Part shown: positions 20,862 to 38,513 of the stretch, one piece after another | How positions within the stretch are numbered: the stretch's first letter is position 1 | How the letters are laid out: the number at the start of each line of letters is the position of its first letter | Assembly (NCBI RefSeq): GCF_947494125.1 | Contig: NZ_CANLTU010000004.1 | Coordinates: 186,001 to 250,000, forward strand | DNA: 64,000 bases | Direction: 5' to 3' | From: an uncultured Tenacibaculum sp. | Lineage (GTDB): Bacteria > Bacteroidota > Bacteroidia > Flavobacteriales > Flavobacteriaceae | Program-made: the position numbers and the translations under genes | The notes under the pieces: generated by a model | Seen by the model: only the letters and a program-made list of their open reading frames with translations | The model's database searches: none | Told to the model about the DNA's origin: nothing

Positions 20862-20899
20862 AAAAATAAAGCCCAGATATTTTTCTGAGCTTTATTTTT
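20862..20899 (-). terminator. Terminator of the minus-strand glycan locus
   Basis: Arms 20862-20876 and 20885-20899 pair with one G-T (AAAGCCCAG against CTGAGCTTT), flanked by T runs on the minus strand. It overlaps the stop codon of the aminotransferase gene and marks the 3' end of the long glycan cluster. Confidence 0.8.
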
Positions 20900-22037
20900 A
20901 CTTATTTAGTACCTTATTTATAGATTTTTTAATTCTAATTCTATCTTCGTCTGTTAAATTTGACCCAGAAGGTAAACACAATCCATCTTTAAACAATTTC
21001 TCTGACACATTAGAACCATAATAATCATAATCTTTAAAAATTGGTTGTAAATGCATTGGTTTCCATAATGGACGAGATTCAATATTATCTTTTTCTATAG
21101 CTAAACGTAAATCTTCTCTTGAAAACCCTGTTTTAGATTCATCTACAATTATAGCACTTAACCAATGATTCGAGTAATAATCTTGTGTAGCCTCTTCGAA
21201 TACAGTTATTCCTTCAATATTTTTAAATACTTCTTTATAAAACTGGTTATTTGCTCTACGATAATCAATATGTTCATCCAACACTTCCATTTGACCACGA
21301 CCAATACCTGCTACAATATTACTCATGCGATAGTTATATCCAACTTCTGAATGTTGATAGTGGGGTGCATTGTCACGTGCTTGAGTAGCAAAAAAGATAG
21401 CTTTTTCTTTATCTTCTTTATTTTTACAAACCAATGCTCCTCCTCCTGAAGTTGTTATGATTTTATTTCCATTGAAAGATAAAATACTAAAATCACCAAA
21501 AGTCCCACATTTTTGCCCTTTAAAGGTTGAACCTAAGGCTTCTGCAGCATCCTCTATTAAAGAAATATCATATTTTTTTGAAATAGCTAAGATCTCATCC
21601 ATTTTAGCAGGCATACCATATAAATGAACTACAATAATTGCTTTAGGCTTATTGCCTTTTACTATTTTATCTTTAATAGCTTCTTCTAGCGCAATCGGAC
21701 ACATATTCCATGTATCTTTCTCACTATCTACAAAAACAGGAGTTGCTCCTTGATAAATAATTGGGTTTGCCGAAGCCGAAAAAGTCATACTTTGACAAAT
21801 AACTTGATCTTTATTAGATACTTCAGCTAGTATTAGCGCTAAATGTAACGCAGAAGTCCCTGAAGACAAACAAGCTACCTTTGAGTTTTCTTCTATATAA
21901 TCTTCTAAATCTTTCTCAAACCCATTTACATTTGGGCCTAACGGGGCTACCCAATTTGTATCAAAAGCTTCCTGTACGTATTTTTGCTCAGCTCCTCCCA
22001 TATGTGGAGAGGATAGCCAAATTTTATGTTTTTTCAT
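20898..22037 (-). CDS. DegT/DnrJ/EryC1 aminotransferase, PglE-like
   Basis: The 379-residue PLP enzyme has CLSSGTSALHLALIL (PLP phosphate contact), IEDAAEALGS (ring-binding Asp) and the catalytic lysine in SFNGNKIITTSGGG (Lys192 by my count). It transfers an amino group from glutamate to a 4-keto (or 3-keto) nucleotide sugar. As the last gene of a cassette with a PglC-type transferase, ATP-grasp and HAD genes, and with a PglF-type dehydratase elsewhere in the window, a C4 aminotransferase of bacillosamine type is the best guess. The matching acetyltransferase (PglD) is not in the window. The substrate is inferred. Confidence 0.88.
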   Translation of the reverse strand: MKKHKIWLSSPHMGGAEQKYVQEAFDTNWVAPLGPNVNGFEKDLEDYIEENSKVACLSSGTSALHLALILAEVSNKDQVICQSMTFSASANPIIYQGATPVFVDSEKDTWNMCPIALEEAIKDKIVKGNKPKAIIVVHLYGMPAKMDEILAISKKYDISLIEDAAEALGSTFKGQKCGTFGDFSILSFNGNKIITTSGGGALVCKNKEDKEKAIFFATQARDNAPHYQHSEVGYNYRMSNIVAGIGRGQMEVLDEHIDYRRANNQFYKEVFKNIEGITVFEEATQDYYSNHWLSAIIVDESKTGFSREDLRLAIEKDNIESRPLWKPMHLQPIFKDYDYYGSNVSEKLFKDGLCLPSGSNLTDEDRIRIKKSINKVLNK

Positions 22038-22046
22038 CTCTTTTTT

Positions 22047-22706
22047 TTAAGAAATTATCCGTATATCTTTTAATGAATAAATATAATAGTTTGGGAGTTT
22101 TCCTACATCTAATTTCTCTTGAGAATGGTGATGGATATTTTTTCCGTTATCTATTAGGCATATCGTTTTCCAATTTAACTTGTTTGGTGCAATAAAATCT
22201 TTCAAAAGGTTATCTCCAATATAATAGCAATCTTCTCTTTTAAATTCATTTTGAATTAATTGAAACCCTTTTAAAGAAGGCTTAACTTCACCTATCTCTT
22301 CAGAAATAGAAATATAATCAAACATTTCTTGAATCCCTAAAGCCCTTAATTTATTCCTTTGAGTAATTGATCTTCCATCTGTCAATAAAGCCAATTTTAC
22401 AGATTTAGTTTTAAGTATTTGAAATAATTCTAAGACTGAGTAATCTAAACTTAATGAAGGTTTATGATTTCTATAAATACTTAAAAGATTCTCTTTTTGT
22501 ACTGGATAAACACCTGATAAATATTCAAATACATCTTGGTTATTTCTATATAATGAAAACATAACAGAGAATATTTCTCTCTCTTTTGTTTTATCAATGT
22601 AACTAGCAATACATTTATATCCAGAAATTAGATAATCTAACTCATTGTAAAGTGTGTCGTCTAAATCAAAGACTATCAAAGTATTAAAATCAACCTTTAT
22701 ATCCAT
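22047..22706 (-). CDS. HAD-family hydrolase
   Basis: The 219-residue protein shows all four HAD motifs: FDLDDTLYNE (nucleophile Asp14 and Asp16), LLTDGRS, the lysine in GEVKPSLKGF and CYYIGDNLLKDFIAP. It has a helical cap of type C1, so it is probably a small-molecule phosphatase. It overlaps the upstream ATP-grasp gene by 17 bases and ends 9 bases before the aminotransferase gene, so these three form a coupled unit. The substrate is not evident; a phosphorylated sugar or ATP-grasp product is possible. Confidence 0.85.
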   Translation of the reverse strand: MDIKVDFNTLIVFDLDDTLYNELDYLISGYKCIASYIDKTKEREIFSVMFSLYRNNQDVFEYLSGVYPVQKENLLSIYRNHKPSLSLDYSVLELFQILKTKSVKLALLTDGRSITQRNKLRALGIQEMFDYISISEEIGEVKPSLKGFQLIQNEFKREDCYYIGDNLLKDFIAPNKLNWKTICLIDNGKNIHHHSQEKLDVGKLPNYYIYSLKDIRIIS

Positions 22707-23667
22707 TAACTATTATTTCTTGATCATATCTAATCATTAATAAATTTTCTATCCAATCATCAAAATAATCATCTTCAAATCTATCTAATATATATTCTTC
22801 AATGATCCATTTAGGAAAGTTTGCTCCAGAATTATAAGATAGAGGATAACCTCCTCCAAACCTTGGATTTATTTCAATTCCAATAATTTCATCTTTATCA
22901 TTATGCTTAAAAACTTGAAGTGTAATGCAGCCTCTCAATCCATTCAAATTCTTTAATTTTTCTTTTACGTATAATACAATGCTATTATTCCTAGTGCATG
23001 CAGTATTGACTTCTCCATCGCGGACAATTATTCTTTCTCTAGGAACAATACATTTAATTTTAGAATGTTTCGTAAAATAAATGTCAATTGTAAATTCAAC
23101 ATAATTATCGCTTGGTAAATATTCTAAGAACATATTTTTGTTATTCTCTAAAATCTCTTGAGTTAAGTCATTTTTGGATTCTATCAAATAAATACCTTGT
23201 GACCTACTTCCATCAGATGGTTTTACAAAAGATGGGTATTTAAGTTTTTTAATATTATATTCCTGTGCTCTTTTAAACTCTATTGAATCAAAAAAATCAT
23301 GTATCAACCTTTTATCTCTACATTTCTGAATAAACTCTAGATTAGATATTAAAACTATAATCCCATTTTTAGAAAAAAGCTCTACATTTTTAGCTAAAGT
23401 TTCTAATTCAGTATCAATAGTTGGAATTACGATTCTTATATTATTCTCAATACATATATCTAATAAATCATTAATATATTCTATATCTGTAACTTTTTTT
23501 ACTTTAAAAAAGCCATCTGCAACTTGACATGCTGAAGATAATATTGGATTAAGATCAGTGCAATAGATTCTAGAAAAAAGCCCTAGTGATTTAACCTCTT
23601 CTTTGAAAGAATTCACAAGAGAAACTCTTCTCCCTGCTGATGTAATAAGTATATTAGTTTTTTCCAT
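22690..23667 (-). CDS. ATP-grasp ligase-like protein in glycan cassette
   Basis: The 325-residue protein has an N-terminal NAD-like pre-grasp domain ([20 protein letters not shown]). The ATP-grasp core follows: [20 protein letters not shown] (nucleotide-binding lysine loop), [18 protein letters not shown] and the metal-binding [15 protein letters not shown]. Proteins of this type, annotated as carbamoyl-phosphate-synthase-like or PylC-like, join a carboxylate to an amine or similar acceptor using ATP. It overlaps both neighbours (14 bases with the sugar transferase, 17 with HAD), so it is translationally coupled in the cassette. An amino-acid or acyl decoration of an amino sugar is a reasonable inference; no acceptor is identifiable. 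Confidence 0.82.
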
Positions 23668-24259
23668 TAAATTTCTCTATTGTAGCATGATTCTCGGCTG
23701 ATATTCCTTCTGACTTAATAACTTTTTTAAAAGATTTAAAAAAGATTTCTAGGTCTAAATAAAACGAGATATTATTAACATAATAAATATCCAACTGAAA
23801 TTTTGAAGTCCAACTAATGGCATTTCTACCATTTACTTGTGCCCAACCAGAAATACCAGGTCTAACATCATGTCGTTTTTTTTGTTCTTGATTATAGTAT
23901 AATAAATATTCTGGTAATAAAGGTCTAGGTCCAATTATACTCATATCACCTTTTAATACATTAATTAATTGAGGCAATTCATCTAAGGATGATTTACGCA
24001 CTATACGTCCAATTTTACTAATCCGTTTAGAATCAGGTAGCAAATTTCCTTTACTATCCTTTTTATCATTCATTGTTTTAAACTTTATAATGTAAAACAA
24101 TTTTTCATCTTTTCCTGGTCGAGATTGAAAAAAGAAAGGTTTCCCTTTATTTACAATAGTTAAGCCAATTGAAACTAAAACAAGTAACGGGAATGTTAAA
24201 AACAATCCTAAAGTAGCAAATATAAAATCTATAACTCTTTTAAATATCTTGTTATACAT
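23654..24259 (-). CDS. Initiating phosphosugar transferase, PglC-like
   Basis: The 201-residue protein is a small monotopic polyprenyl-phosphate sugar-1-phosphate transferase. It has one N-terminal membrane helix ([20 protein letters not shown]), then [19 protein letters not shown]. The catalytic [20 protein letters not shown] is followed by [14 protein letters not shown] and [13 protein letters not shown]. It moves a sugar-1-phosphate from UDP onto undecaprenyl phosphate, the first membrane step of repeat-unit assembly. It lacks the large N-terminal domain of WbaP/WcaJ. It is the only clear initiating transferase in the window. Confidence 0.93.
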
Positions 24260-24263
24260 ATTT

Positions 24264-24983
24264 TTAATTTTTAAAATCTAACGAAAATTGTTTTAACAAA
24301 AAACCATATTCATCTTTATAGTTATATCTAATTTTAAAAAAAATAAATATTTTATTAAAAACATGATATAAACTTTTATTCTTAAAATTATTAAATATAA
24401 GGCTAACTTTTGCTTTTGCAGACAATTTACTTAGTTTCAATTCACTATTATTTACTGCCAAATAAAAACTTTTTACAATTGCTTTATTGAAGCTTCCTTC
24501 AAAGGGCTTATAGCTATTCTCTTTCATTTTAGATTTCAATGTTTTTATCTTATCTTTTCTTATCCAATTATTATGCAATAATTCCTTTAAAAAAGATAAA
24601 GCAAATTCATATTCTTCTGAAGGGACATAAATTAAACCATTATAAAGCATTTTAGAACTTAACAGCTCATCAATATTTAAATATTCAAGTCCAACATAAT
24701 TAAAACTCCACCATATATCTATTTTTAAAACCTCATCAAACTCATTATAAAACTGCATCTTAATAACATCAAGCCTTATCAATTCAATCTTTACATCATA
24801 ACAATGTTTAAAGGCTAATTTATTCAAAATACTAAAAAAAAACTTTTTATCACTCGAAGCAATTCCAAAATCTACGTCATTTACAACTTTTTTTGGCAGT
24901 TTTTCATACCCTCTTAAAACACAATACCTTATAGACTCCTTATTTAATTCTTCAAATAATTCTCTCAAAAAAATAGCATCCAT
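24264..24983 (-). CDS. Nucleotidyltransferase-fold protein of unknown role
   Basis: The track uses TTG at 24989; the ATG two codons on (24983, [13 protein letters not shown]) is preferred. The protein has the pattern [20 protein letters not shown] (about residues 20-39), in which a conserved Arg-Gly-Tyr-Glu segment is followed by an Asp-Val-Asp like the metal site of MNT-type nucleotidyltransferases, and [12 protein letters not shown], with a possible third Asp. The remainder is helical and lysine-rich. Similar proteins occur in glycan loci without an assigned reaction. It sits four bases before the sugar transferase gene. I would call it a putative nucleotidyltransferase; function unknown. 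Confidence 0.68.
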
Positions 24984-25008
24984 AATCAATTTATTAAAAC
25001 ATCTAATT

Positions 25009-26220
25009 TTAAAAGTTTTTAAACATTTTTTTATTTTTTATTTTTTTATTTCCTAAAGAAACAAAATTAGGAATATTACTAACTTCACCTAATAACCATT
25101 TATATAGTTGAATAGTTTTATGACCAATATCTTCCCAAACATAATCTTTTAATACTAATTCTCTCCCATTAACTCCCATTTCTTCTAATTCAGCAGTAGA
25201 TTTGCTAGTAGCCTCAAAAAGCCCATCTTCAATTCCTTCTTGAGTATTCTCTACCCAAAACCCACTATTTGTAGTATGTAAATTTTCCCATGGAGCACCA
25301 TAAGTCGTTAATACTGGTACCGATCTTGCTAATGCTTCTGCTACAACAATACCAAAATTCTCAGTGTATGTAGGTAAAACAAATAAATCAGAAGAATCAA
25401 ATAATTTTATTTTATTGTCATTAAAAACCGGCCCGCAAAAAATAACTTTGTCTTTTATTCCAAGCTCATTTGCATATGCCTTTAAAGACTCTATATATAT
25501 AGCTTCTCCATTACCCGCAATTGTTAGTTCCCAACTATTTTGTCTTGTTTGGTTTAATTTTGAAAATGCTAAAAATAATCTCTCAATTCCTTTTGAAGGG
25601 TGAATTCTTGACAAAAAAAGCATTTTTCTCTTTTCGGCTAAAGACTTCTTTTTTTCTTCTTTTTTAATAAAACTTCTCCAAACCCCATTTGGTATTAGAG
25701 CAATATCTTTATTTGGAAATAAATCTCTTAAATGTTTTACTTCTCTTTCTGAACAACCAATTAATATAGATGATCTAGTTAAATTTATTTTTTCAAATAA
25801 ATTATACATAACTTTTTTTTTCAAACTAGACATTTTCAAACTAAAAGGCTCTAAATAACCATGTGGTTGAATAATTACAGGTATATTATCACGAGCAGCT
25901 GCAATTGAAAGTTCTGAATTCCTTAACCATAGTCCGTGTTGATGAATCAAATCAAAATCACTTAACTCTTTTTTTAAAAAATTCATTTTTTTTAAAAGCC
26001 CATAATTAGGGTTTAAATATGTATCTAAGGCTTTTATTCTAATTTTCATTTCATTTGTTAAATCTTCTCTTATCTCTATTTCTTCATTTTTACTTCCTGG
26101 AAACCATAAATGAGAATCAACTTCTTTAAAGTTTTGTAATTTAAAATACGCAAAAGCAACCTCGTGTACTCCTCCACCTCTTTTAAGACCAGCAACATTT
26201 GCTAAATTTAAAACTCTCAT
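25009..26220 (-). CDS. Glycosyltransferase, GT4 family
   Basis: The 403-residue GT-B fold enzyme has an N-terminal glycine-rich loop (NVAGLKRGGGVHEVAFAY), LIHQHGLWLRNSEL, and the donor-binding C-terminal domain with FLSRIHPSKGIERLFLAF. The GT4 E-x7-E region reads PTYTENFGIVVAEALARSVP. It probably adds one sugar to the lipid-linked repeat at the inner face of the membrane. It lies six bases after the next upstream glycosyltransferase gene (start at 27381), in the same operon. Donor and acceptor cannot be told from sequence. Confidence 0.9.
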   Translation of the reverse strand: MRVLNLANVAGLKRGGGVHEVAFAYFKLQNFKEVDSHLWFPGSKNEEIEIREDLTNEMKIRIKALDTYLNPNYGLLKKMNFLKKELSDFDLIHQHGLWLRNSELSIAAARDNIPVIIQPHGYLEPFSLKMSSLKKKVMYNLFEKINLTRSSILIGCSEREVKHLRDLFPNKDIALIPNGVWRSFIKKEEKKKSLAEKRKMLFLSRIHPSKGIERLFLAFSKLNQTRQNSWELTIAGNGEAIYIESLKAYANELGIKDKVIFCGPVFNDNKIKLFDSSDLFVLPTYTENFGIVVAEALARSVPVLTTYGAPWENLHTTNSGFWVENTQEGIEDGLFEATSKSTAELEEMGVNGRELVLKDYVWEDIGHKTIQLYKWLLGEVSNIPNFVSLGNKKIKNKKMFKNF

Positions 26221-26226
26221 CGTTTT

Positions 26227-27381
26227 CTATTTATATATGTTTAACAAAATATCATCAAAATCCTTAACATAAGAAGAATATGAAAAATTCTCTTTAAAAA
26301 AATTATAAGACATTGTTTTCATTAATTTAACTTCATTTAAACTAATAGATTCTAAAAAGCTTATAGCATAAGTTAAATCATTTTCACTAAAATTAACACC
26401 TATTCTATTTCCCTTAATAAACAACGAAGTATCACCTTTTGCAGAATTAATTATAGGAATACCATAAGACCAGTAATCAATAGATTTATATGATAACGCT
26501 ACTTCTGTGGTATCTTTATAGCCATTAAAACCAAACCACGAGTCTTTTAATAATTCATATTTTTTATTTTCTTCAAAAATTTTACCATAATAAACATAGT
26601 TAATTCCGTAAAAATTCAATTTATCAATAAAATAATCTTTTTTATCTCCATCTCCAATAATTTTTATGAAAATTTCACGTTTTTTTGATACAATTAAAGC
26701 TATCTGAATAAAACTATCAATATCATTAATCCTCCCAATATTTCCTAAATAACAAAAGGTTAACGTTTCTGAAATAGAACTATTATAGTCTATTAATTCA
26801 TTTTCTTGAGTTTTTTTAAGGTAAATAATTCTGGCTTTTTTTTCTTTATCAATTTGCATGAGTTGAAAAAAGTAATTAGATTCTGTAATTATATAATCCG
26901 AATTCTGGATCGTAAAATTTCTAAGACTCTTCCAAATTTTACCAAAGGTTATATTAAGTATTTTTTTTGCAGGTACAGGTACAGGTAATGCTTCTGGCCA
27001 TACGTCAATAATATCAACTATTATTTTTATGTTATTTTTTTTTGAAAACTTTGTCAATAAATAACCTAAAAAATTTGGGGGCACAGTTACAAAAAGTAAA
27101 TCTACATTCATTTTTTTTAAAAAAAATAAAGTCTTGATGCTAAAAATAATATGAGAAATTATTCTAATCACAGAGAAATTCGAACTATAACCAAGAGTAT
27201 TAATCTTATGGTAATTAGGAGCATCAAATTCTCTTTTTTTCTTGTTACTATGAGAGAAATCGGAGTATACAACATGCATCTCGAAATCTTCTCTTTGTTC
27301 GAAATATTTTGATGCAAGGTAAGGCCTTGAATTTGGTAGTCTTTCAAAAAAATTTGAAACTATAACAACTTTTCTAATCAT
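26227..27381 (-). CDS. Glycosyltransferase, GT4-like
   Basis: The 384-residue protein begins MIRKVVIVSNFFERLPNSRP and has VDIIDVWPEALPVP in its first half, a stretch typical of WbuB-like GT4 enzymes. The second domain has TFCYLGNIGRINDIDSFIQ. The donor-site region is less canonical (YKDTTEVALSYKSIDYWSYG, where an E-x7-E is usual). It overlaps the upstream phosphotransferase gene by 8 bases, so it is translationally coupled. It probably extends the repeat unit; sugar specificity is unknown. Codon use is strongly A/T-biased, like its neighbours. Confidence 0.85.
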   Translation of the reverse strand: MIRKVVIVSNFFERLPNSRPYLASKYFEQREDFEMHVVYSDFSHSNKKKREFDAPNYHKINTLGYSSNFSVIRIISHIIFSIKTLFFLKKMNVDLLFVTVPPNFLGYLLTKFSKKNNIKIIVDIIDVWPEALPVPVPAKKILNITFGKIWKSLRNFTIQNSDYIITESNYFFQLMQIDKEKKARIIYLKKTQENELIDYNSSISETLTFCYLGNIGRINDIDSFIQIALIVSKKREIFIKIIGDGDKKDYFIDKLNFYGINYVYYGKIFEENKKYELLKDSWFGFNGYKDTTEVALSYKSIDYWSYGIPIINSAKGDTSLFIKGNRIGVNFSENDLTYAISFLESISLNEVKLMKTMSYNFFKENFSYSSYVKDFDDILLNIYK

Positions 27382-28534
27382 ATAAAAACGAATTATATTC
27401 TTTTATAAACTTATCTGTTCTTACACCTGGATTAAAAAAGTTTATTGACCAATCATTCATTATCAAAAATGAGAATTCTTCAATTAAGATTAATAGTTTA
27501 TATAGCTCATCAGGTATTCCTTTTGTTTTTATAAAATATTTAGAATTTTTTTGTTTAAAAATCTCATGTTTTTCAAAAGCTTTAATTAAATTATTCCCTT
27601 CTCTTATACCTGATACCAAAACAAAAAGATCATAAAACATAAATCTATTCGACACCATTTCCCAATCAATAACCACAGGCTTGTTTTTTGAATTAATTAA
27701 GATATTTGAAGATTGAAAATCTCCATGATTTAATGATATAGGGATTATAATATCAGAATATTTATTAATCAGATCCTTTAAGCTGTTCAATTCAGTAACA
27801 GTTTTAAAAGCTCTATTATTAATCTCTTTATTGTTAAATTTACTTGCGACATCCCATATTTTAACTTCAAGCGTTGATATTAAATGTTTAAAGTAAGTTA
27901 ATACATTAATTTCACTTAAATTTGGTTTTAACAGTTCTTTTTCATGCAACTCATAACATTTTAATTTTAAATTAAAAGTTGTTTTCGTATTCTTAAGTCT
28001 ATTAATAGGAGTCGCATAAATAAACTCTTCCTGAAACCAAAACATCCCATGATTTATTAACTTAGGTATATATGAAACATCATTAGCACTAGATTTTCTA
28101 AAGTTAATTTCATTAGATATTAGTGATGTATCTTCTCCTTTTTTTAGTAATACATAAATTTGTCCCTTTATTTCATTTGACAATCTCATTCTATGATTAC
28201 CTCCAATAATTAAAAAATCACTTATTGTAAATTGAAACCTAATTTTTTTACATAAAATAGGCAATATCATTCTGTTAGTCGCTAAGAATACATAGCTGCT
28301 CTGTAAAACAGTTCTTAAGTAAGTTTTACCAACAGAATATTCATTACTCAAATTAGTAAAAAAATGTTTTGTTTTTGGGAGAGTTGTTATAAAATTCAAA
28401 TATTTATTAATATAGTAAACTCCTTCATTATTATTAATCATGCTCCCTATTACAGCTTCTCTTTTAGCTTCAATAAGTGTACTTTCAATAATATTAAAAA
28501 AAGGTTCCCTTTTAACTAATTCGCTAATTCTCAT
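27374..28534 (-). CDS. Aminoglycoside/choline-kinase-like phosphotransferase
   Basis: The 386-residue protein has the Brenner-type motif of the APH/choline-kinase family, SLNHGDFQSSNILINSKNKP, followed by the metal-binding VVIDWEMVSNRFMFYDL. The N-terminal lobe is poorly conserved. In this setting an antibiotic substrate is unlikely; transfer of phosphate to a sugar, polyol or amino-alcohol is a more natural idea. It overlaps the TMK-like gene by 11 bases and the GT4 gene by 8, so it is in the middle of a coupled block. The substrate is unknown. Confidence 0.75.
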   Translation of the reverse strand: MRISELVKREPFFNIIESTLIEAKREAVIGSMINNNEGVYYINKYLNFITTLPKTKHFFTNLSNEYSVGKTYLRTVLQSSYVFLATNRMILPILCKKIRFQFTISDFLIIGGNHRMRLSNEIKGQIYVLLKKGEDTSLISNEINFRKSSANDVSYIPKLINHGMFWFQEEFIYATPINRLKNTKTTFNLKLKCYELHEKELLKPNLSEINVLTYFKHLISTLEVKIWDVASKFNNKEINNRAFKTVTELNSLKDLINKYSDIIIPISLNHGDFQSSNILINSKNKPVVIDWEMVSNRFMFYDLFVLVSGIREGNNLIKAFEKHEIFKQKNSKYFIKTKGIPDELYKLLILIEEFSFLIMNDWSINFFNPGVRTDKFIKEYNSFLYD

Positions 28535-29177
28535 TTTTTTCTATATACGAAATTATTTGCTTTTTAATATCTGATTTACTATCAAAACCATTTATATAAA
28601 TCCCTTTATTATTTTCTAAATATTTTTTATAATAGTTTAATCTTTTTGCTAAAACTTCAGGAGTATCTGGAAATGGTTCAAACTTTTGTTTTGACCTTAT
28701 AACAGATTCTTCTACTGTAATTAGCGCTACAAAATGACTAGAAGGCTTATACATAGTCTTAACAAGGATTTTCCAAATAACCCAATTCTCGAATTTTTGC
28801 AAAGGAAAATTCAATCTAAAATCAATAAATGTATCATAAAGATACCTATCACATATAACTACTTTTCGTAAAATTTTTTCTTGAAACCTAAGGTAAAATG
28901 AATAATAAAAAATCAAATCAACAATTGCTATAAACAACCAAACTTTCTGTACTTTAACATTACTAATTGCCTTGTCTCTAGCTGGTGTATTTCCTGATTT
29001 TGGCAGTTTCTTTCTTAAAACCTTCCTCAAAATTGTTTTAAGAAGCTCAAATCCATCAGTATATCCTCCACGGCTCCAAAAAACCAAAACTTTGGATCCT
29101 TTTTTTTCAAAATATTGTTTCAATATCTCTATTTGTGTCGACTTACCCGCACCATCTAATCCTGAAAAAACTATCAT
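28524..29177 (-). CDS. Thymidylate-kinase-like P-loop kinase in glycan locus
   Basis: The 217-residue protein has the Walker A MIVFSGLDGAGKSTQIEIL at the very N-terminus and the TMK-style VVICDRYLYDTFIDFRLNFP in the middle. The usual TMK substrate residues around the ends of these motifs are not obviously kept, and the fold includes a hydrophobic stretch (VWLFIAIVDLIFYYSFYL) unlike housekeeping Tmk. It overlaps its neighbours by 4 and 11 bases. TMK-like proteins paired with APH-like proteins occur in some polysaccharide loci and probably phosphorylate a non-nucleotide substrate. This is an inference from context. Confidence 0.78.
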   Translation of the reverse strand: MIVFSGLDGAGKSTQIEILKQYFEKKGSKVLVFWSRGGYTDGFELLKTILRKVLRKKLPKSGNTPARDKAISNVKVQKVWLFIAIVDLIFYYSFYLRFQEKILRKVVICDRYLYDTFIDFRLNFPLQKFENWVIWKILVKTMYKPSSHFVALITVEESVIRSKQKFEPFPDTPEVLAKRLNYYKKYLENNKGIYINGFDSKSDIKKQIISYIEKNEN

Positions 29178-31307: not shown

Positions 31308-32558
31308 TTATAAAGGTTTATATTGAAAATCATTTCTCTTACTATAACTAGTGATTCTTAAATTATCCATTTGTTTGAATACAAGAAGCCAGTATATAAT
31401 TTCAACAGTATATCCTGTCAAATTTGAAGAAAATATATTTACCAATAAAATACCAAAAATAATTATTGCTAATTCAAAATATCGCTTTTTAAAAATAGTA
31501 AAGAGAATAAGAGTAAGGTTAAATAAAATCCAAAAAAGGAAAATGAATATCCCACTATCATATAATAATGCTAAATGAAAATTTTCTACATAAACCCCAA
31601 ACCCCATTCCTGGTTCAAGTTCCATATTTGCAAAACCAACACCTTTTCCAAATAAGATTGTTATAAAATTGTCATTCCCTAAATTATCTATTAATTGTGT
31701 TATAGAACCTAACCTTGCTGTATAACTATGCTCCTTTAATGTAACAATCGATAATATATCATCCAATTTACCTGTAAGAACAACTGCAAACGCAAAAACA
31801 AAACTTGATAACAAAATTTTTAAGGTTTTCTTGTGGTAAATCAAGTTATAACAAATAACAACAAAAAGCATTACATATGAAGATCTACTTCCCATAACTA
31901 TCATAGGTATTATAGATATAATCACAAGAAAATAAAACATTTTAGTTTTTTTATTTTCATAATAAAAAAAAGACAAAAAGCTTACAAGTTCAATAGAAAA
32001 AATAATTGGAGTACTAAGGTTTGACGGTCTAAAACTTTGTCCTCCATATGCAAATAAATGTTCAAATTCAGTACCAGAATAAATATTAACCACTCCAAAA
32101 AAGGAATAATCAATAACAGTTCTGTAATAAACTATAATTAAGTTTACAATAAAATAAGGCACTAAAAGTTGGGAGAATTTTAAATTATTTTTTTTTGAAT
32201 AAATGAAAGAATAATATATAACAAACGGTATTACAATAAATCTATAAATTGAAAGAATTATTTGAAATCCTGATAATGACACCAACAATACTTGTAGTAA
32301 GATCAAAACACTAACTAAAGCCCAAATTACAATATGCTTAGTTTTAATTAAACTATCTTTAACAAGATGTATGGATAACATTAATATTATTAAGGCTATT
32401 AACAAGTATGAGCCTGAACGAAAATTTGCATTTATAACAGGTGATAAACTTGTTGCTAAAGCAAAAAACATTGCAGAATAATAAGGTTTGCTATAAAGAG
32501 TTTTTAGTATCATTATAATTAATACTAAAAAGACAACAACACTAAGAAAAGCAAGCAT
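31308..32558 (-). CDS. O-antigen/capsule polymerase, Wzy-like
   Basis: The 416-residue protein is almost wholly hydrophobic, with about eleven or twelve helices. A larger polar loop near the end contains LFGKGVGFANMELEPGMGFG and YVENFHLALLYDSG, the kind of periplasmic loop with a conserved His seen in O-antigen ligase/polymerase families. Placed between a glycosyltransferase and an acyltransferase and with a flippase nearby, it is the likely Wzy that joins flipped repeat units. Wzy sequences diverge strongly, so the call rests on topology, the loop and context. Confidence 0.85.
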   Translation of the reverse strand: MLAFLSVVVFLVLIIMILKTLYSKPYYSAMFFALATSLSPVINANFRSGSYLLIALIILMLSIHLVKDSLIKTKHIVIWALVSVLILLQVLLVSLSGFQIILSIYRFIVIPFVIYYSFIYSKKNNLKFSQLLVPYFIVNLIIVYYRTVIDYSFFGVVNIYSGTEFEHLFAYGGQSFRPSNLSTPIIFSIELVSFLSFFYYENKKTKMFYFLVIISIIPMIVMGSRSSYVMLFVVICYNLIYHKKTLKILLSSFVFAFAVVLTGKLDDILSIVTLKEHSYTARLGSITQLIDNLGNDNFITILFGKGVGFANMELEPGMGFGVYVENFHLALLYDSGIFIFLFWILFNLTLILFTIFKKRYFELAIIIFGILLVNIFSSNLTGYTVEIIYWLLVFKQMDNLRITSYSKRNDFQYKPL

Positions 32559-33692: not shown

Positions 33693-35033
33693 TTACATTC
33701 TATCTAAATACTTAACTGTAAAAACTGATTGAATAATAGTGTGTATCAAGTAAGATATCAAAAAACTATAAGCTAAACCTTTTGCTCCATATCCTAATTT
33801 TAATAAAATAAATGTACTTATCAATAAGACTGCACCCCAAATTGAATTAAAAATAAACCCAATCCACATTTTACCTTTTCCAGCTATTGCTTGTCCAACA
33901 ACTCCATTAATTGAAATTAAAACAGTAGAAAATGCCAATATTATAAGAATAATATTTCCCTCAGCAAAACCTTTCCCATAAGTATTCATGATTATAGAAG
34001 AAAAGAGAGAGATTCCAATTGCCATAATCAATGAAATTATAAAATTAATTATAACATTTAGTTTCAAGATACGCATAAATTGTTGTCGGTCGGTAGAACC
34101 CGACAAAAGTGGTAATACAATCTGAGAAAGGACAACAGGTACAAAAAGAATGGCACTCTTCCATTGATTAGCCGCAGAAAACATAGCCATTTCATCAAAA
34201 CCTTTTGGTTCATTCACTAACATTGCATTACATGCCCAAATAATAGGACTCACCATTAATCCAGAAAGAAGAGCTGGCAAACTAAATTTATAAAGAATTG
34301 GCCATTCATTTAATGCTTTTTTAAATTGGATAGTAATCCCAAATTTAAAAGATTCTCTCCGAACCGCTACAAAATTAAGTACCCACAAAATTAAAAAATT
34401 TAACCCAAAACCAATTACAGATCCAGGTAAACCAAAAACAAAAGTAAAGCCAATTTGAATTGGAAAAACCAGAATTACTGATATAATATTAACCTTAGCT
34501 ATAATCTTGAAAGACTCAAAACCTGCAAGTATACCTGTTTGTGCTCCGTTTAGCGAACTAAAAAAAAGTATAAATGCACTCAAGCGAATTTCATTAACCA
34601 AGTGGGCTGCATTTATAGTTTTTTCCGCTAAAAATGGTGCGGAAATTAATAAAAAAACAGCAATAACACCTCCCGTAGCTCCTGCAAAAAGGGATGTAAG
34701 TCCAATAATTTTCCCTGCTTTATCTTTATCTTTTATCTTAAATTCAGCGATATATTTGGTTGCTGTCAAGCCTAATCCAAAACCCGCAAAAACTGTAAAC
34801 ATATTTACCGTAGAACGAATAATTCCTAATTCTCCAAATTCTGTTTTCCCTAATATTCGCGCAACAACTATCGAAGCTACTAACATTAATCCTTGTGAAA
34901 GAACTGAACCTGTTAGAGACCATAAAGCTCCACTAGCAATTCGCCTTCCTATATCTGATTCTTCAACTCTATTCCAAAACTTTTTAAGAACCTTTGGAAG
35001 AATCGAATATATTTTAACTCCTATATTATTCAA
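33693..35033 (-). CDS. Oligosaccharide flippase, Wzx-like
   Basis: The 446-residue protein has about twelve to fourteen helices and the N-terminal signature IGRRIASGALWSLTGSVLSQ, then LMLVASIVVARILGKTEFGELG, typical of polysaccharide transporters of the MATE-like superfamily. It should flip the undecaprenyl-linked repeat across the inner membrane. The start is a TTG at 35033: an in-frame stop lies three codons upstream and the next Met is inside the first helix. No ATG alternative exists, so either TTG is used or the original start was lost. Confidence 0.9.
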   Translation of the reverse strand: MNNIGVKIYSILPKVLKKFWNRVEESDIGRRIASGALWSLTGSVLSQGLMLVASIVVARILGKTEFGELGIIRSTVNMFTVFAGFGLGLTATKYIAEFKIKDKDKAGKIIGLTSLFAGATGGVIAVFLLISAPFLAEKTINAAHLVNEIRLSAFILFFSSLNGAQTGILAGFESFKIIAKVNIISVILVFPIQIGFTFVFGLPGSVIGFGLNFLILWVLNFVAVRRESFKFGITIQFKKALNEWPILYKFSLPALLSGLMVSPIIWACNAMLVNEPKGFDEMAMFSAANQWKSAILFVPVVLSQIVLPLLSGSTDRQQFMRILKLNVIINFIISLIMAIGISLFSSIIMNTYGKGFAEGNIILIILAFSTVLISINGVVGQAIAGKGKMWIGFIFNSIWGAVLLISTFILLKLGYGAKGLAYSFLISYLIHTIIQSVFTVKYLDRM

Positions 35034-35166: not shown

Positions 35167-36018
35167 TTATTTTAAACAAAGTCTTAATGAGTCTTTCCAA
35201 TATGGTATTTCTATATTATATTGTTCTATAATCTTTCTTTTGCTTAATATAGAATATAATGGTCTTTTTGCTGCTGTAGGATATTGGTTTGTCTCAATAG
35301 GATTCACTTTAATATCAATTCCAGAACATTCAAAGATTGCCTTTGCAAAATCATACCAACTACAAATACCCTGATTTGAAAAATGATACACTTCTACCTC
35401 TTTATTTTGTAATTGAGGTAAAATTTCAAGAATAATTCTTGCTAAATCTTTAGCGTATGTGGGAGTACCGACTTGATCAGCTATAACAGATAACTCATCT
35501 CTTTCACTCCCCAATCTTAGCATTGTTTTTACAAAATTATTACCATAATTAGAATACACCCATGACGTTCTAATAATAATAGAGTTTTCTGGAGCAATTT
35601 CCTGAACTGCTACTTCTCCTGCCGCTTTTGTTATTCCATAAACAGTTTGTGGGTTTGTAGCATCTGATTCTAAATAAGGTCTGTTTTGGATTCCATCAAA
35701 CACATAATCTGTAGAGATTTGAATTAATTTAATTTTTAAGTCTTTGGCAATTCTAGCAAAATTCTTAACAGCCAAATGATTTACCTCATCATTCAGTTCC
35801 TTTTCTCCTTCAGCTTTATCGACAGCAGTATAAGCTGCACAATTAACAATCACTTCAATTTCATTGTTTATAATGAAATTTTTCACTAAAGAATGATTTG
35901 TAATATCTAACTCTTTTGAATCTGTAAAATAAAAAACATGCTCATAATACTTACTCTGAAAATCTTTCAATTCAGAGCCTAATTGGCCACTTCCTCCTGT
36001 AACTAATATCTTAGACAT
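35167..36018 (-). CDS. rfbD: dTDP-4-dehydrorhamnose reductase
   Basis: The track begins at 36057, but the ATG at 36018 (MSKILVTGGSGQLGSELKDF) matches the family N-terminus, giving 283 residues. It has the Rossmann glycine loop, QISTDYVFDGIQNRPY and the SDR catalytic pair in YGITKAAGEVAVQEIAP, and ends EIPYWKDSLRLCLK. It reduces the 4-keto group to finish dTDP-L-rhamnose. It overlaps rfbC by 8 bases. A broken relative of this gene lies at 20075. Confidence 0.96.
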   Translation of the reverse strand: MSKILVTGGSGQLGSELKDFQSKYYEHVFYFTDSKELDITNHSLVKNFIINNEIEVIVNCAAYTAVDKAEGEKELNDEVNHLAVKNFARIAKDLKIKLIQISTDYVFDGIQNRPYLESDATNPQTVYGITKAAGEVAVQEIAPENSIIIRTSWVYSNYGNNFVKTMLRLGSERDELSVIADQVGTPTYAKDLARIILEILPQLQNKEVEVYHFSNQGICSWYDFAKAIFECSGIDIKVNPIETNQYPTAAKRPLYSILSKRKIIEQYNIEIPYWKDSLRLCLK

Positions 36019-36583
36019 ACAATTTATCTTTGAAATTAAAATAGGATGCCTTTTCAAAAACAGGTTGTTTCGTATCTTTTTCTGACAACTTCATTACTTC
36101 TATAGGAATCCCCCAATCAATATTTAAAAAATCATCATCAAATGCAATTCCTCTATCACATTCTGGATTGTAGAAATTATCTACTTTATATGCAAAAGTA
36201 GCTTCCTCACTTAATACTAAAAAACCATGAGCAAACCCTCTAGGAACTAATAGTTGTTTTTTATTTTCTCCTGTCAATTCAACTGCAACATGCTTTCCAA
36301 ATGTAGGAGACCCTTTTCTAATATCAACAGCTACATCTAATACACTACCTGTAATTACTCTAACTAATTTTGTTTGTGCATACGGTGCTAATTGATAGTG
36401 AAGTCCTCTTAAAACTCCATACGATGATTTTGACTCATTATCTTGACAAAAATCTATATCAAACCCTAAAAAAGCATCTAGCTTGTCTTCTCGAAATGTT
36501 TCTGTAAAATACCCACGCTCATCACCAAAAATTTGAGGTTCACAAATCACTACATCAGGTATTTCTGTTCTTGTAAATCTCAT
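36011..36583 (-). CDS. rfbC: dTDP-4-dehydrorhamnose 3,5-epimerase
   Basis: The ATG at 36583 (MRFTRTEIPDVVICEPQIFG) is preferred over the GTG at 36586. The 190-residue cupin has GDERGYFTETFRE, FCQDNESKSSYGVLRGLHYQ with the catalytic His, then KLVRVITGSVLDVAVDIRKG and FAHGFLVLSEEATFAYK. It epimerises C3 and C5 of the 4-keto sugar. It is tightly packed between rfbA and rfbD. Confidence 0.96.
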   Translation of the reverse strand: MRFTRTEIPDVVICEPQIFGDERGYFTETFREDKLDAFLGFDIDFCQDNESKSSYGVLRGLHYQLAPYAQTKLVRVITGSVLDVAVDIRKGSPTFGKHVAVELTGENKKQLLVPRGFAHGFLVLSEEATFAYKVDNFYNPECDRGIAFDDDFLNIDWGIPIEVMKLSEKDTKQPVFEKASYFNFKDKLYV

Positions 36584-36585
36584 CA

Positions 36586-37461
36586 CTAATTTTTTACCCT
36601 ATTAATTAAATATTGTCCATAACCATTTTTCTTTAATGGTTCTGCTAACACTAATAATTCTTCTTTAGAAATATACCCCATTTCAAAAGCAATTTCCTCA
36701 ATACAAGCTATTTTTAACCCTTGTCTATTTTCTATTGCTTGAATATAGTTTGAAGCTTCTAACAGTGATTCATGAGTACCTGTGTCTAACCAAGCATATC
36801 CTCTCCCCATTAACTCCACTTTTAGATTACCTTTATCTAAGTAAGCTTGATTTATCGAAGTAATTTCTAACTCACCTCTATCACTTGGTTTCACCTTCTT
36901 AGCTATTCCTATAACCGAATTTGGATAAAAATATAAACCAACAACGGCATGGTTACTTTTTGGATTTTTGGGTTTTTCTTCAATACTCAATGCACTTCCT
37001 TCTTTATTAAAGTCTACAACCCCATAACGTTCTGGATCCTGCACATAATAACCAAAAACAGTAGCCATTTTTTCTTCTTCAACATTTCTCAGAGAGGATG
37101 CTAGTAATTTTGTAAATCCATGGCCATAAAAAATATTATCTCCTAATACCAAGCACACATCATCATTACCTATAAAATCTTCGCCTAAAATAAACGCTTG
37201 AGCAAGTCCATCTGGCGAGGGTTGCACCTTATATAAAAACTTCATTCCCAACTCCTCACCTGTTCCCAATAATTTAATGAAATTTGGTAAATCATCTGGT
37301 GTCGAAATTATCAATACTTCTTTAATACCTGCCAGCATTAATACTGACAAAGGGTAATAAATCATCGGTTTATCGTTAATAGGTAACAACTGTTTTGAAA
37401 CAGCCTTTGTTAATGGATACAACCTAGTTCCTGAGCCTCCCGCTAAAATAATTCCTTTCAT
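36586..37461 (-). CDS. rfbA: Glucose-1-phosphate thymidylyltransferase
   Basis: The 291-residue enzyme starts [20 protein letters not shown], then [19 protein letters not shown], the nucleotide- and sugar-phosphate-binding signature. It also has [32 protein letters not shown] and [16 protein letters not shown]. It makes dTDP-glucose from dTTP and glucose-1-phosphate, the first step toward dTDP-rhamnose. It lies two bases after rfbB in the rfbBACD order. Confidence 0.97.
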
Positions 37462-37463
37462 AT

Positions 37464-38513
37464 TTACTTGTATTGTTTTTTATAATATTTTTCATACTCT
37501 CCACTTACAATACGCTTCATCCATCCTTCATTATCAAGGTACCAATCAATTGTCTTAGACAAACCTTCTTCAAAAGTAACGGAAGGCTTCCACCCCAACT
37601 CTTTACTTATTTTTGAAGCATCAATAGCATAGCGCAAGTCGTGCCCTGGACGATCTTTTACATAAGTAATTAGTTTTTCGCTTTCTCCTTTATCTCTTCC
37701 AAGTTTTTCATCCATCTGAAGGCATAATAATTTAATCAAGTTAATATTTTGCCATTCATTAAAACCGCCAATATTATACGTTTCTTCATTTTTTCCTTTG
37801 TGAAAAATCAAATCTATTGCAATGGCATGATCTACAACGTATAACCAATCACGTGTGTATTTACCATCTCCATAAACAGGTAATGCTTTATTCTTTATTA
37901 TATTATTAATAAACAATGGAATTAACTTTTCTGGAAATTGATTACCTCCATAATTATTTGAACAATTAGAAATCACATATGGTAATCCATATGTTTCTCC
38001 ATAAGCTCTTACAAAATGATCAGAACTTGCCTTACTAGCAGAATAAGGTGAATTAGGGTCATAAGAAGTTGTTTCAGTAAACAACCCAGTTTCTCCAAGT
38101 GTTCCGTATACTTCGTCAGTACTTATATGGTAAAACAATTTGTTTTCCCATTTATCTTGCCACAATTCTTTGAAAGCATTCAACAATACCATAGTTCCCA
38201 ATATATTAGTTTTCGCAAATGCCAATGGATCTGATATAGACCTATCCACATGAGATTCAGCGGCTAAATGTATAACACTATCAAATTTATACTTTCTAAA
38301 AAGTTTTCTTATAAAAACTTCATCAGTTATATCACCTTTAATAAAAGTGTAATTAGATCTATTTTCTATGTCTGTTAAGTTTTCTAAATTACCAGCATAC
38401 GTAAGCAAATCTATATTATAGACCTCATACTCATGGTATTTATTTACAATAAGTCGTACAACATGAGAACCTATAAAACCTGCTCCTCCTGTAATTAATA
38501 TTTTTTTACTCAT
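37464..38513 (-). CDS. rfbB: dTDP-glucose 4,6-dehydratase
   Basis: The 349-residue extended SDR has [45 protein letters not shown] (with the Thr-Asp-Glu of this dehydratase) and the Tyr-Lys pair in [32 protein letters not shown] and [16 protein letters not shown] follow. It makes dTDP-4-keto-6-deoxyglucose. It heads the rfbBACD block after a 170-base gap from wecB. Confidence 0.97.

What the first reader, a model, noticed from the sequence alone, without database searches (positions are those of the whole stretch)
24264..29177. Kinase-like, phosphotransferase-like and nucleotidyltransferase-like trio inside a glycosyltransferase operon
A TMK-like P-loop kinase (28524), an APH/choline-kinase-like protein (27374) and an MNT-like nucleotidyltransferase (24264) are embedded among glycosyltransferase genes, the first two overlapping. 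None has an obvious job in standard nucleotide-sugar synthesis. Together they could activate an unusual non-sugar substituent (for example a polyol- or amino-alcohol-phosphate) by phosphorylation and nucleotidylation for transfer to the glycan. I know of no described pathway with this combination.
Basis: inference. Interest (0 to 1): 0.62.

Follow-up and report, generated by a model that had tools for sequence, protein, structure and literature searches.

The report
Kinase–nucleotidyltransferase–kinase module for surface polysaccharides
Three enzymes sitting among sugar-transferase genes in this bacterium (two kinases and a nucleotidyltransferase) belong together: in many other bacteria they are kept in the same genome and often fused into one protein inside polysaccharide gene clusters, so they very probably carry out one shared, so far undescribed step in building the cell-surface polysaccharide.

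Summary
The trio is real and at the stated coordinates: NTase-like 24264-24989(-), APH-like kinase 27374-28534(-), TMK-like kinase 28524-29177(-), in a Wzx/Wzy-type polysaccharide operon of a Bacteroidota genome. Among 80 APH-anchored loci from at least six phyla, 30 encode all three as one ~800-aa protein (28 in the order APH-NTase-TMK, 2 in the permuted order NTase-TMK-APH), 35 encode APH plus an NTase-TMK fusion, 3 are cut by contig ends, and in all 12 others an NTase-TMK fusion lies elsewhere in the same genome. In 297 Bacteroidota genomes, 8 of 8 with the APH have the NTase (9 have it in all). Catalytic residues are intact. Models built without the window recognise all three window proteins (the APH weakly). 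So 'one functional unit of polysaccharide synthesis' is well supported. The chemistry is not shown: activation of a substituent by phosphorylation and nucleotidylation is compatible, but direct phosphorylation/capping of the lipid-linked glycan is a serious rival, since no dedicated transferase was seen to travel with the trio. No description of the combination was found in the held open-access papers.

The parts
24264..24989 (-). NTase-like protein (Pol-beta-type nucleotidyltransferase fold, D38/D40/D91), 241 aa
   Evidence: (window-free model 74.5 bits, 2e-21)
27374..28534 (-). APH/choline-kinase-fold kinase with family-specific N-terminal region, 386 aa; K129, E142, H270-G-D272, N277, D290 present
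   Evidence: (window-free model 25.5 bits, 1.5e-6)
28524..29177 (-). TMK-like P-loop kinase, 217 aa; P-loop residues 6-14, D110-R111-Y112
   Evidence: (window-free model 48.6 bits, 1e-13)
25009..26220 (-). GT4 glycosyltransferase between NTase and APH, nearest to the GT4 subfamily that stands beside the trio in about 54 other loci
   Evidence: 178.8 bits; best non-subfamily neighbour GT 120 bits
26227..27381 (-). divergent GT4-like glycosyltransferase, overlaps APH by 8 bp
   Evidence: weak, 17 bits
29174..30043 (-). GT2 glycosyltransferase, overlaps the TMK-like gene by 4 bp
23654..24259 (-). initiating sugar-1-phosphate transferase (Bac_transf)
31308..32558 (-). Wzy/O-antigen-ligase-like polymerase (weak)
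33693..35033 (-). Wzx flippase
35167..38513 (-). rmlD, rmlC, rmlA, rmlB (dTDP-L-rhamnose)

Best explanation
The three proteins are a split, divergent version of a conserved three-enzyme machine (APH-fold kinase, Pol-beta-type NTase, TMK-fold kinase) of Wzx/Wzy-type polysaccharide synthesis. Shown: the association, the fusions, the intact catalytic residues, the polysaccharide context, and the absence of transmembrane-like segments. Inferred: the APH-like kinase phosphorylates a hydroxyl of a cytosolic sugar or alcohol; the TMK-like kinase, whose fold acts on phosphorylated substrates, adds a second phosphate or serves the nucleotide partner; the NTase joins a nucleotidyl or phosphoryl group, giving an activated, phosphate-linked component. 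A neighbouring glycosyltransferase, most likely the GT4 at 25009-26220, then builds it into the lipid-linked repeat unit before flipping by Wzx. The order of the kinase steps and the substrate are not known.
For: Association: tblastn of the NTase-TMK fusion and of the APH from one Agrobacterium locus against 72,556 plasmids hit the same six records. That locus had been reached with the window's NTase alone. 80 APH-anchored loci: 30 triple fusions, 35 APH + NTase-TMK fusion, 3 contig-end, 12 APH-only; all 12 of the last have an NTase-TMK fusion elsewhere in the genome. Domain order differs in L027/L029, suggesting independent fusions. 297 Bacteroidota genomes: NTase in 8/8 APH genomes (hypergeometric 7e-15). 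Window membership by window-free models; window APH aligns along the whole family profile, unusual N-terminus included. Catalytic residues conserved. Context is flippase, polymerase, PCP and GT4 genes. Structure: triple fusion pLDDT 88, pTM 0.82, hits to dTMP kinase and macrolide phosphotransferase; window APH hits choline kinase, LicA and APH(2'').
Against: Substrate and product are unknown. No dedicated transferase for an activated substituent was seen to travel with the trio (only the top 25 Pfam families were shown). The window's APH is remote (about 18% identity, 25.5 bits) and its TMK lacks some family motifs (RP and RK replaced). One genome has an APH-NTase fusion without a detectable TMK (G262), and three have a TMK-like protein without the APH, so the TMK is not strictly tied to the other two. 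The NTase and TMK models were trained on APH-linked loci, which favours co-occurrence.
Confidence: 0.45

Rival explanations
1. The trio acts directly on the lipid-linked glycan: the APH-like enzyme phosphorylates a sugar of the repeat unit, and the NTase then caps or bridges that phosphate (with NMP or a sugar phosphate), the TMK-like enzyme adding a second phosphate. No further transferase is needed.
For: No separate transferase was seen to accompany the trio. Precedent: in the pseudomycoidin cluster the kinase PsmK phosphorylates a serine and the annotated nucleotidyltransferase PsmN is needed to put hexose on that phosphate (PMC9266682). The APH-superfamily fold also holds enzymes acting on glycan-like acceptors such as aminoglycosides.
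Against: The fold neighbours are mostly small-molecule kinases; nothing shows binding of a lipid-linked acceptor; proteins are soluble.
Confidence: 0.3
2. The trio makes a nucleotide sugar from a free sugar: APH = anomeric kinase (as known for NahK/AmgK-type APH enzymes, from general knowledge), NTase = nucleotidylyltransferase, TMK = kinase of the nucleotide.
For: Order of activities fits sugar -> sugar-1-P -> NDP-sugar; the conserved Bacteroidota operon holds several GT4s but no nucleotide-sugar genes of its own.
Against: Known sugar-1-phosphate nucleotidylyltransferases are of the RmlA type, not the Pol-beta fold (general knowledge); many loci carry the ordinary rml genes as well.
Confidence: 0.12
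3. The trio is regulatory: nucleotide-dependent control of polysaccharide synthesis rather than a biosynthetic step.
For: Many of the Bacteroidota operons start with response-regulator genes and a Wzc-like tyrosine kinase.
Against: Regulators are lineage-specific whereas the trio is kept in loci without them; all three catalytic sites are conserved.
Confidence: 0.08
4. The TMK-like protein recycles dTMP/dTDP for the rml pathway and the other two are unrelated passengers.
For: rmlABCD lies about 6 kb from the TMK-like gene in the window and next to the module in Leisingera.
Against: Fusion of all three in loci without rml genes nearby; score far below the dTMP kinase cut-off (31.7 vs 83.25); the window TMK has relatives in only 3 of 251 family genomes, itself included.
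Confidence: 0.03
5. The trio is a chance neighbourhood in a mosaic polysaccharide locus.
For: Single-sequence searches find almost nothing; window proteins are divergent and split by two GT genes.
Against: Everything.
Confidence: 0.02

Closest known systems
Pseudomycoidin PsmK/PsmN (lasso peptide kinase + annotated nucleotidyltransferase; PMC9266682)
   Same: A kinase followed by an annotated nucleotidyltransferase that together put a phosphate-linked group on a substrate
   Different: Peptide substrate, one kinase only. Whether PsmN is related in sequence was not tested here
Choline kinase / LicA and aminoglycoside phosphotransferases (PF01636/PF01633)
   Same: Fold and catalytic residues of the APH-like protein
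   Different: Unique ~100-aa N-terminal region; no LicC/LicD-type partners in the window's locus; fused to or kept with NTase-TMK
dTMP kinase (PF02223/TIGR00041)
   Same: P-loop, DR(Y), fold
   Different: Far below the dTMP kinase cut-off; rare; found in polysaccharide loci; family-specific motifs (R-P-x-x-L-P, R-K-Q-E)
PF14907 NTP_transf_5 and MNT/ANT-type nucleotidyltransferases
   Same: Three catalytic Asp; profile match
   Different: No Pfam hit for the window protein; the classical G-S motif is missing; a separate PF14907 gene exists elsewhere in the same genome

Membership tests
APH-NTase-TMK polysaccharide module (defined here) | All three proteins encoded in one polysaccharide locus | tested here: met
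   window-free models find all three
APH-NTase-TMK polysaccharide module (defined here) | Catalytic residues of all three conserved | tested here: met
   window TMK lacks some family-specific, non-P-loop motifs
APH-NTase-TMK polysaccharide module (common form, not a defining requirement) | NTase and TMK fused, or all three fused | tested here: not met
   in the window all three are separate genes, NTase about 2.4 kb from APH; fusions in 65 of 80 related loci
dTMP kinase | Score above the TIGR00041 equivalog cut-off | tested here: not met
   31.7 vs 83.25 bits
dTMP kinase | Activity on dTMP | not testable with these tools
   needs an assay
APH superfamily (PF01636) | Score above gathering cut-off and HGDxxxxN / D motifs | tested here: met
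   34.5 vs 23.2 bits; residues
Choline kinase / lic pathway | PF01633 above cut-off | tested here: not met
   26.9 vs 29 bits
Choline kinase / lic pathway | LicC/LicD partners in the locus | tested here: not met
   none among Pfam hits of the window locus
MNT/Pol-beta nucleotidyltransferases | Two-plus-one catalytic Asp | tested here: met
   D38, D40, D91
MNT/Pol-beta nucleotidyltransferases | G-S/G-G motif before the first Asp pair | tested here: not met
   window reads LRGYEKLP...NDVD
PF14907 NTP_transf_5 | Pfam score above cut-off | tested here: not met
   no hit; distant profile relation only
MNT/HEPN toxin-antitoxin | Adjacent HEPN gene | tested here: not met
   neighbours are glycosyltransferase and sugar-transferase genes
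PsmN-type nucleotidyltransferase | Sequence relationship to PsmN | not tested

The most novel reading that the evidence does not exclude
A widespread, previously undescribed enzymatic machine (kinase, Pol-beta-type nucleotidyltransferase and second kinase, often one polypeptide) that makes or attaches a phosphate- or nucleotide-linked component of bacterial surface polysaccharides by chemistry not seen in known glycan pathways.
Probability: 0.4. Interest if true: 0.8.

Novelty: new variant of a known kind. Interest (0 to 1): 0.6.

Why it matters
Kinases and nucleotidyltransferases are often passed over as stray annotations in polysaccharide loci. Showing that these three form one module kept across at least six phyla defines a new family of glycan-modifying machines, gives a marker (the triple fusion) to find them, and makes the question 'what phosphate-linked component do these polymers carry?' directly testable with one gene deletion and a phosphorus NMR spectrum. 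It also ties together protein families that are now mostly annotated as 'hypothetical protein', 'phosphotransferase' or 'dTMP kinase'.

Tried and rejected
Single-sequence searches with the window APH and NTase in 297 Bacteroidota genomes and with the APH in genome contigs found only the window itself or nothing: the families are too divergent, and profiles were needed. PDB sequence searches gave only dTMP kinases for the TMK and nothing useful for the other two. Chance neighbourhood rejected by co-occurrence. Housekeeping dTMP kinase rejected by score and rarity. The APH-only Saprospiraceae loci first looked like exceptions, but all 12 genomes hold an NTase-TMK fusion elsewhere. Ten literature searches found no paper describing the combination (one search gave the pseudomycoidin precedent). 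The library holds only open-licence PMC papers, so absence there is not proof. P0001 finds nothing in phage records.

Full report
Observation. TMK and APH overlap by 11 bp; the APH overlaps the following GT4-like gene by 8 bp and the TMK overlaps the preceding GT2 gene by 4 bp, so they are part of one tightly packed operon. Pfam supports TMK (PF02223, 31.4 bits) and APH (PF01636, 34.5 bits); the NTase has no significant Pfam or NCBIfam match. Neighbours are a GT2, two GT4-like genes, an initiating sugar transferase, Wzy-like and Wzx proteins, rmlABCD and further nucleotide-sugar genes: a Wzx/Wzy-type surface polysaccharide locus. The genome is a Bacteroidota member with PorV.

First link outward. 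With the window NTase alone, tblastn against 72,556 plasmid records found one locus, in Agrobacterium leguminum. The hit protein (P0001, 465 aa) is an NTase fused to a TMK domain, and six genes upstream stands a phosphotransferase (P0002) of APH type, among glycosyltransferase and capsule export genes. P0001 and P0002, searched separately, hit exactly the same six plasmid records: Agrobacterium, four Leisingera, Hymenobacter. In Hymenobacter swuensis both queries fall in one 823-aa protein, which reads APH-NTase-TMK.

Breadth. A scan of about 85,000 prokaryote genomes with an APH alignment (without the window) gave 80 loci from Alpha-, Beta- and Deltaproteobacteria, Bacteroidota, Planctomycetota, Aquificales, Anaerolineales and a Eubacterium. 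Sorting by domain models: 30 loci encode a triple fusion, 35 an APH gene plus an NTase-TMK fusion gene, 3 are cut by contig ends, and 12 have only the APH within 10 kb. In all 12 of the last group the genome holds an NTase-TMK fusion of 433-480 aa elsewhere, in four cases on the same contig, 12-20 kb away (contig sizes and positions; TMK part confirmed). Two triple fusions (L027, L029) have the order NTase-TMK-APH, the others APH-NTase-TMK, which points to separate fusion events. In one fixed set of 297 Bacteroidota genomes, strong matches were: APH 8, NTase 9, TMK 10 genomes; all 8 APH genomes have the NTase and 7 have the TMK (hypergeometric 7e-15 and 3e-11). The exceptions are informative: G262 has an APH-NTase fusion without a TMK; G120 and G382 have a TMK-like protein next to a different NTase-like protein in glycan loci; G424 has a lone TMK-like gene.

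Is the window's trio a member? Profiles iterated without any window sequence recognise the window NTase (74.5 bits, 2e-21), TMK (48.6 bits, 1e-13) and APH (25.5 bits, 1.5e-6); the three other APH proteins found in the same genome are not hit. The APH match is weak in score, but the window APH aligns with the family over its whole length, including the unusual N-terminal region and the GTPGPxRK-like loop, where the window reads GGNHRMRL. Residues expected for catalysis are present: NTase D38, D40, D91; APH K129, E142, H270-G-D272, N277, D290; TMK P-loop 6-14 and D110-R111. The window differs from the common form in that the three are separate genes with two GT4-type genes between NTase and APH; one of these (25009-26220) is nearest to the GT4 subfamily that stands next to the module in about 54 other loci (178.8 bits against 120 for the best other neighbour GT).

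Structure. AlphaFold of a triple fusion from Hymenobacter mucosus gave pLDDT 88 and pTM 0.82; Foldseek matches dTMP kinases and macrolide 2'-phosphotransferase. The window APH model is only moderate (pLDDT 69; first 64 residues low) but matches choline kinase, LicA and APH(2''). The NTase did not appear in the top 50 fold matches; its assignment rests on the three conserved Asp, the predicted strand order, and the profile match to PF14907 (hhalign 94%, E 1e-7). None of the three has a transmembrane-like stretch.

Function. What is shown is a physical and evolutionary unit of three intact enzymes in polysaccharide loci. What it makes is inferred. In Bacteroidota the module sits in a stable operon: response regulator(s), Wzc-like PCP, Wzx, GT4, Wzy, module, hexapeptide acyltransferase, GT4, GT4, DUF1972-type GT4, and a WecA-like initiator. 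No CDP-alcohol or LicD-type transferase was seen, although only the top 25 Pfam families of a sample of neighbours were shown. Either the product is an activated component used by a neighbouring GT, or the NTase itself is the transferase and acts on the glycan; the pseudomycoidin kinase/NTase pair shows that an annotated NTase can be responsible for a sugar on a phosphate (PMC9266682). I put 0.45 on the first and 0.3 on the second.

Limits. The NTase and TMK profiles were trained on APH-linked loci, so the co-occurrence figures lean towards association; the six-plasmid result and the discovery path from the window NTase are free of profile training. Many loci are from metagenome bins. The paper library is open-licence only.

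Noticed in passing
L135:7861-9175 and L136:7238-8529: A TMK-like kinase gene followed by a different NTase-like protein (read by eye in L007/L136: SGGIIRGSMNKYSDIDV), in glycosyltransferase loci without the APH: a second kinase-NTase pairing.
   Followed up: partly
L137:9350-11487 (also L006): TMK-like kinase directly followed by a protein that looks, by eye, like an alkaline-phosphatase-superfamily phosphodiesterase, beside a GT4 gene.
   Followed up: no
L100:331-2304: APH-NTase fusion (658-aa frame) with no detectable TMK part; C-terminus looks degenerate or replaced.
   Followed up: partly
Bacteroidota loci such as L082:2283-17928, L044, L087: Conserved exopolysaccharide operon (response regulators, Wzc-like PCP, Wzx, GT4, Wzy, triple fusion, hexapeptide acyltransferase, three GT4, WecA-like) in Hymenobacter, Saprospiraceae, Cytophagales and Flavobacteriales.
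   Followed up: partly
L139:1432-2559 (own genome): Best TIGR00041 match of the window's genome is below cut-off and lies in a protein that by eye looks like a FolK-deoxynucleoside kinase fusion; no dTMP kinase over the cut-off was found in this genome.
   Followed up: no
window 20898-24259: DegT aminotransferase (LegC-like), HAD hydrolase, ATP-grasp and initiating sugar transferase in a row: possibly synthesis of an aminosugar carrying an amino-acid-like group.
   Followed up: no
L122 (own genome contig C7): A separate PF14907 NTase gene over the Pfam cut-off elsewhere in the same genome.
   Followed up: no
L057, L065, L073, L083 upstream of the module: Very large ORFs next to the operon in some Bacteroidota; the one scanned (L065, 2006 aa) has FG-GAP repeats and a type IX secretion C-terminal domain.
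   Followed up: no
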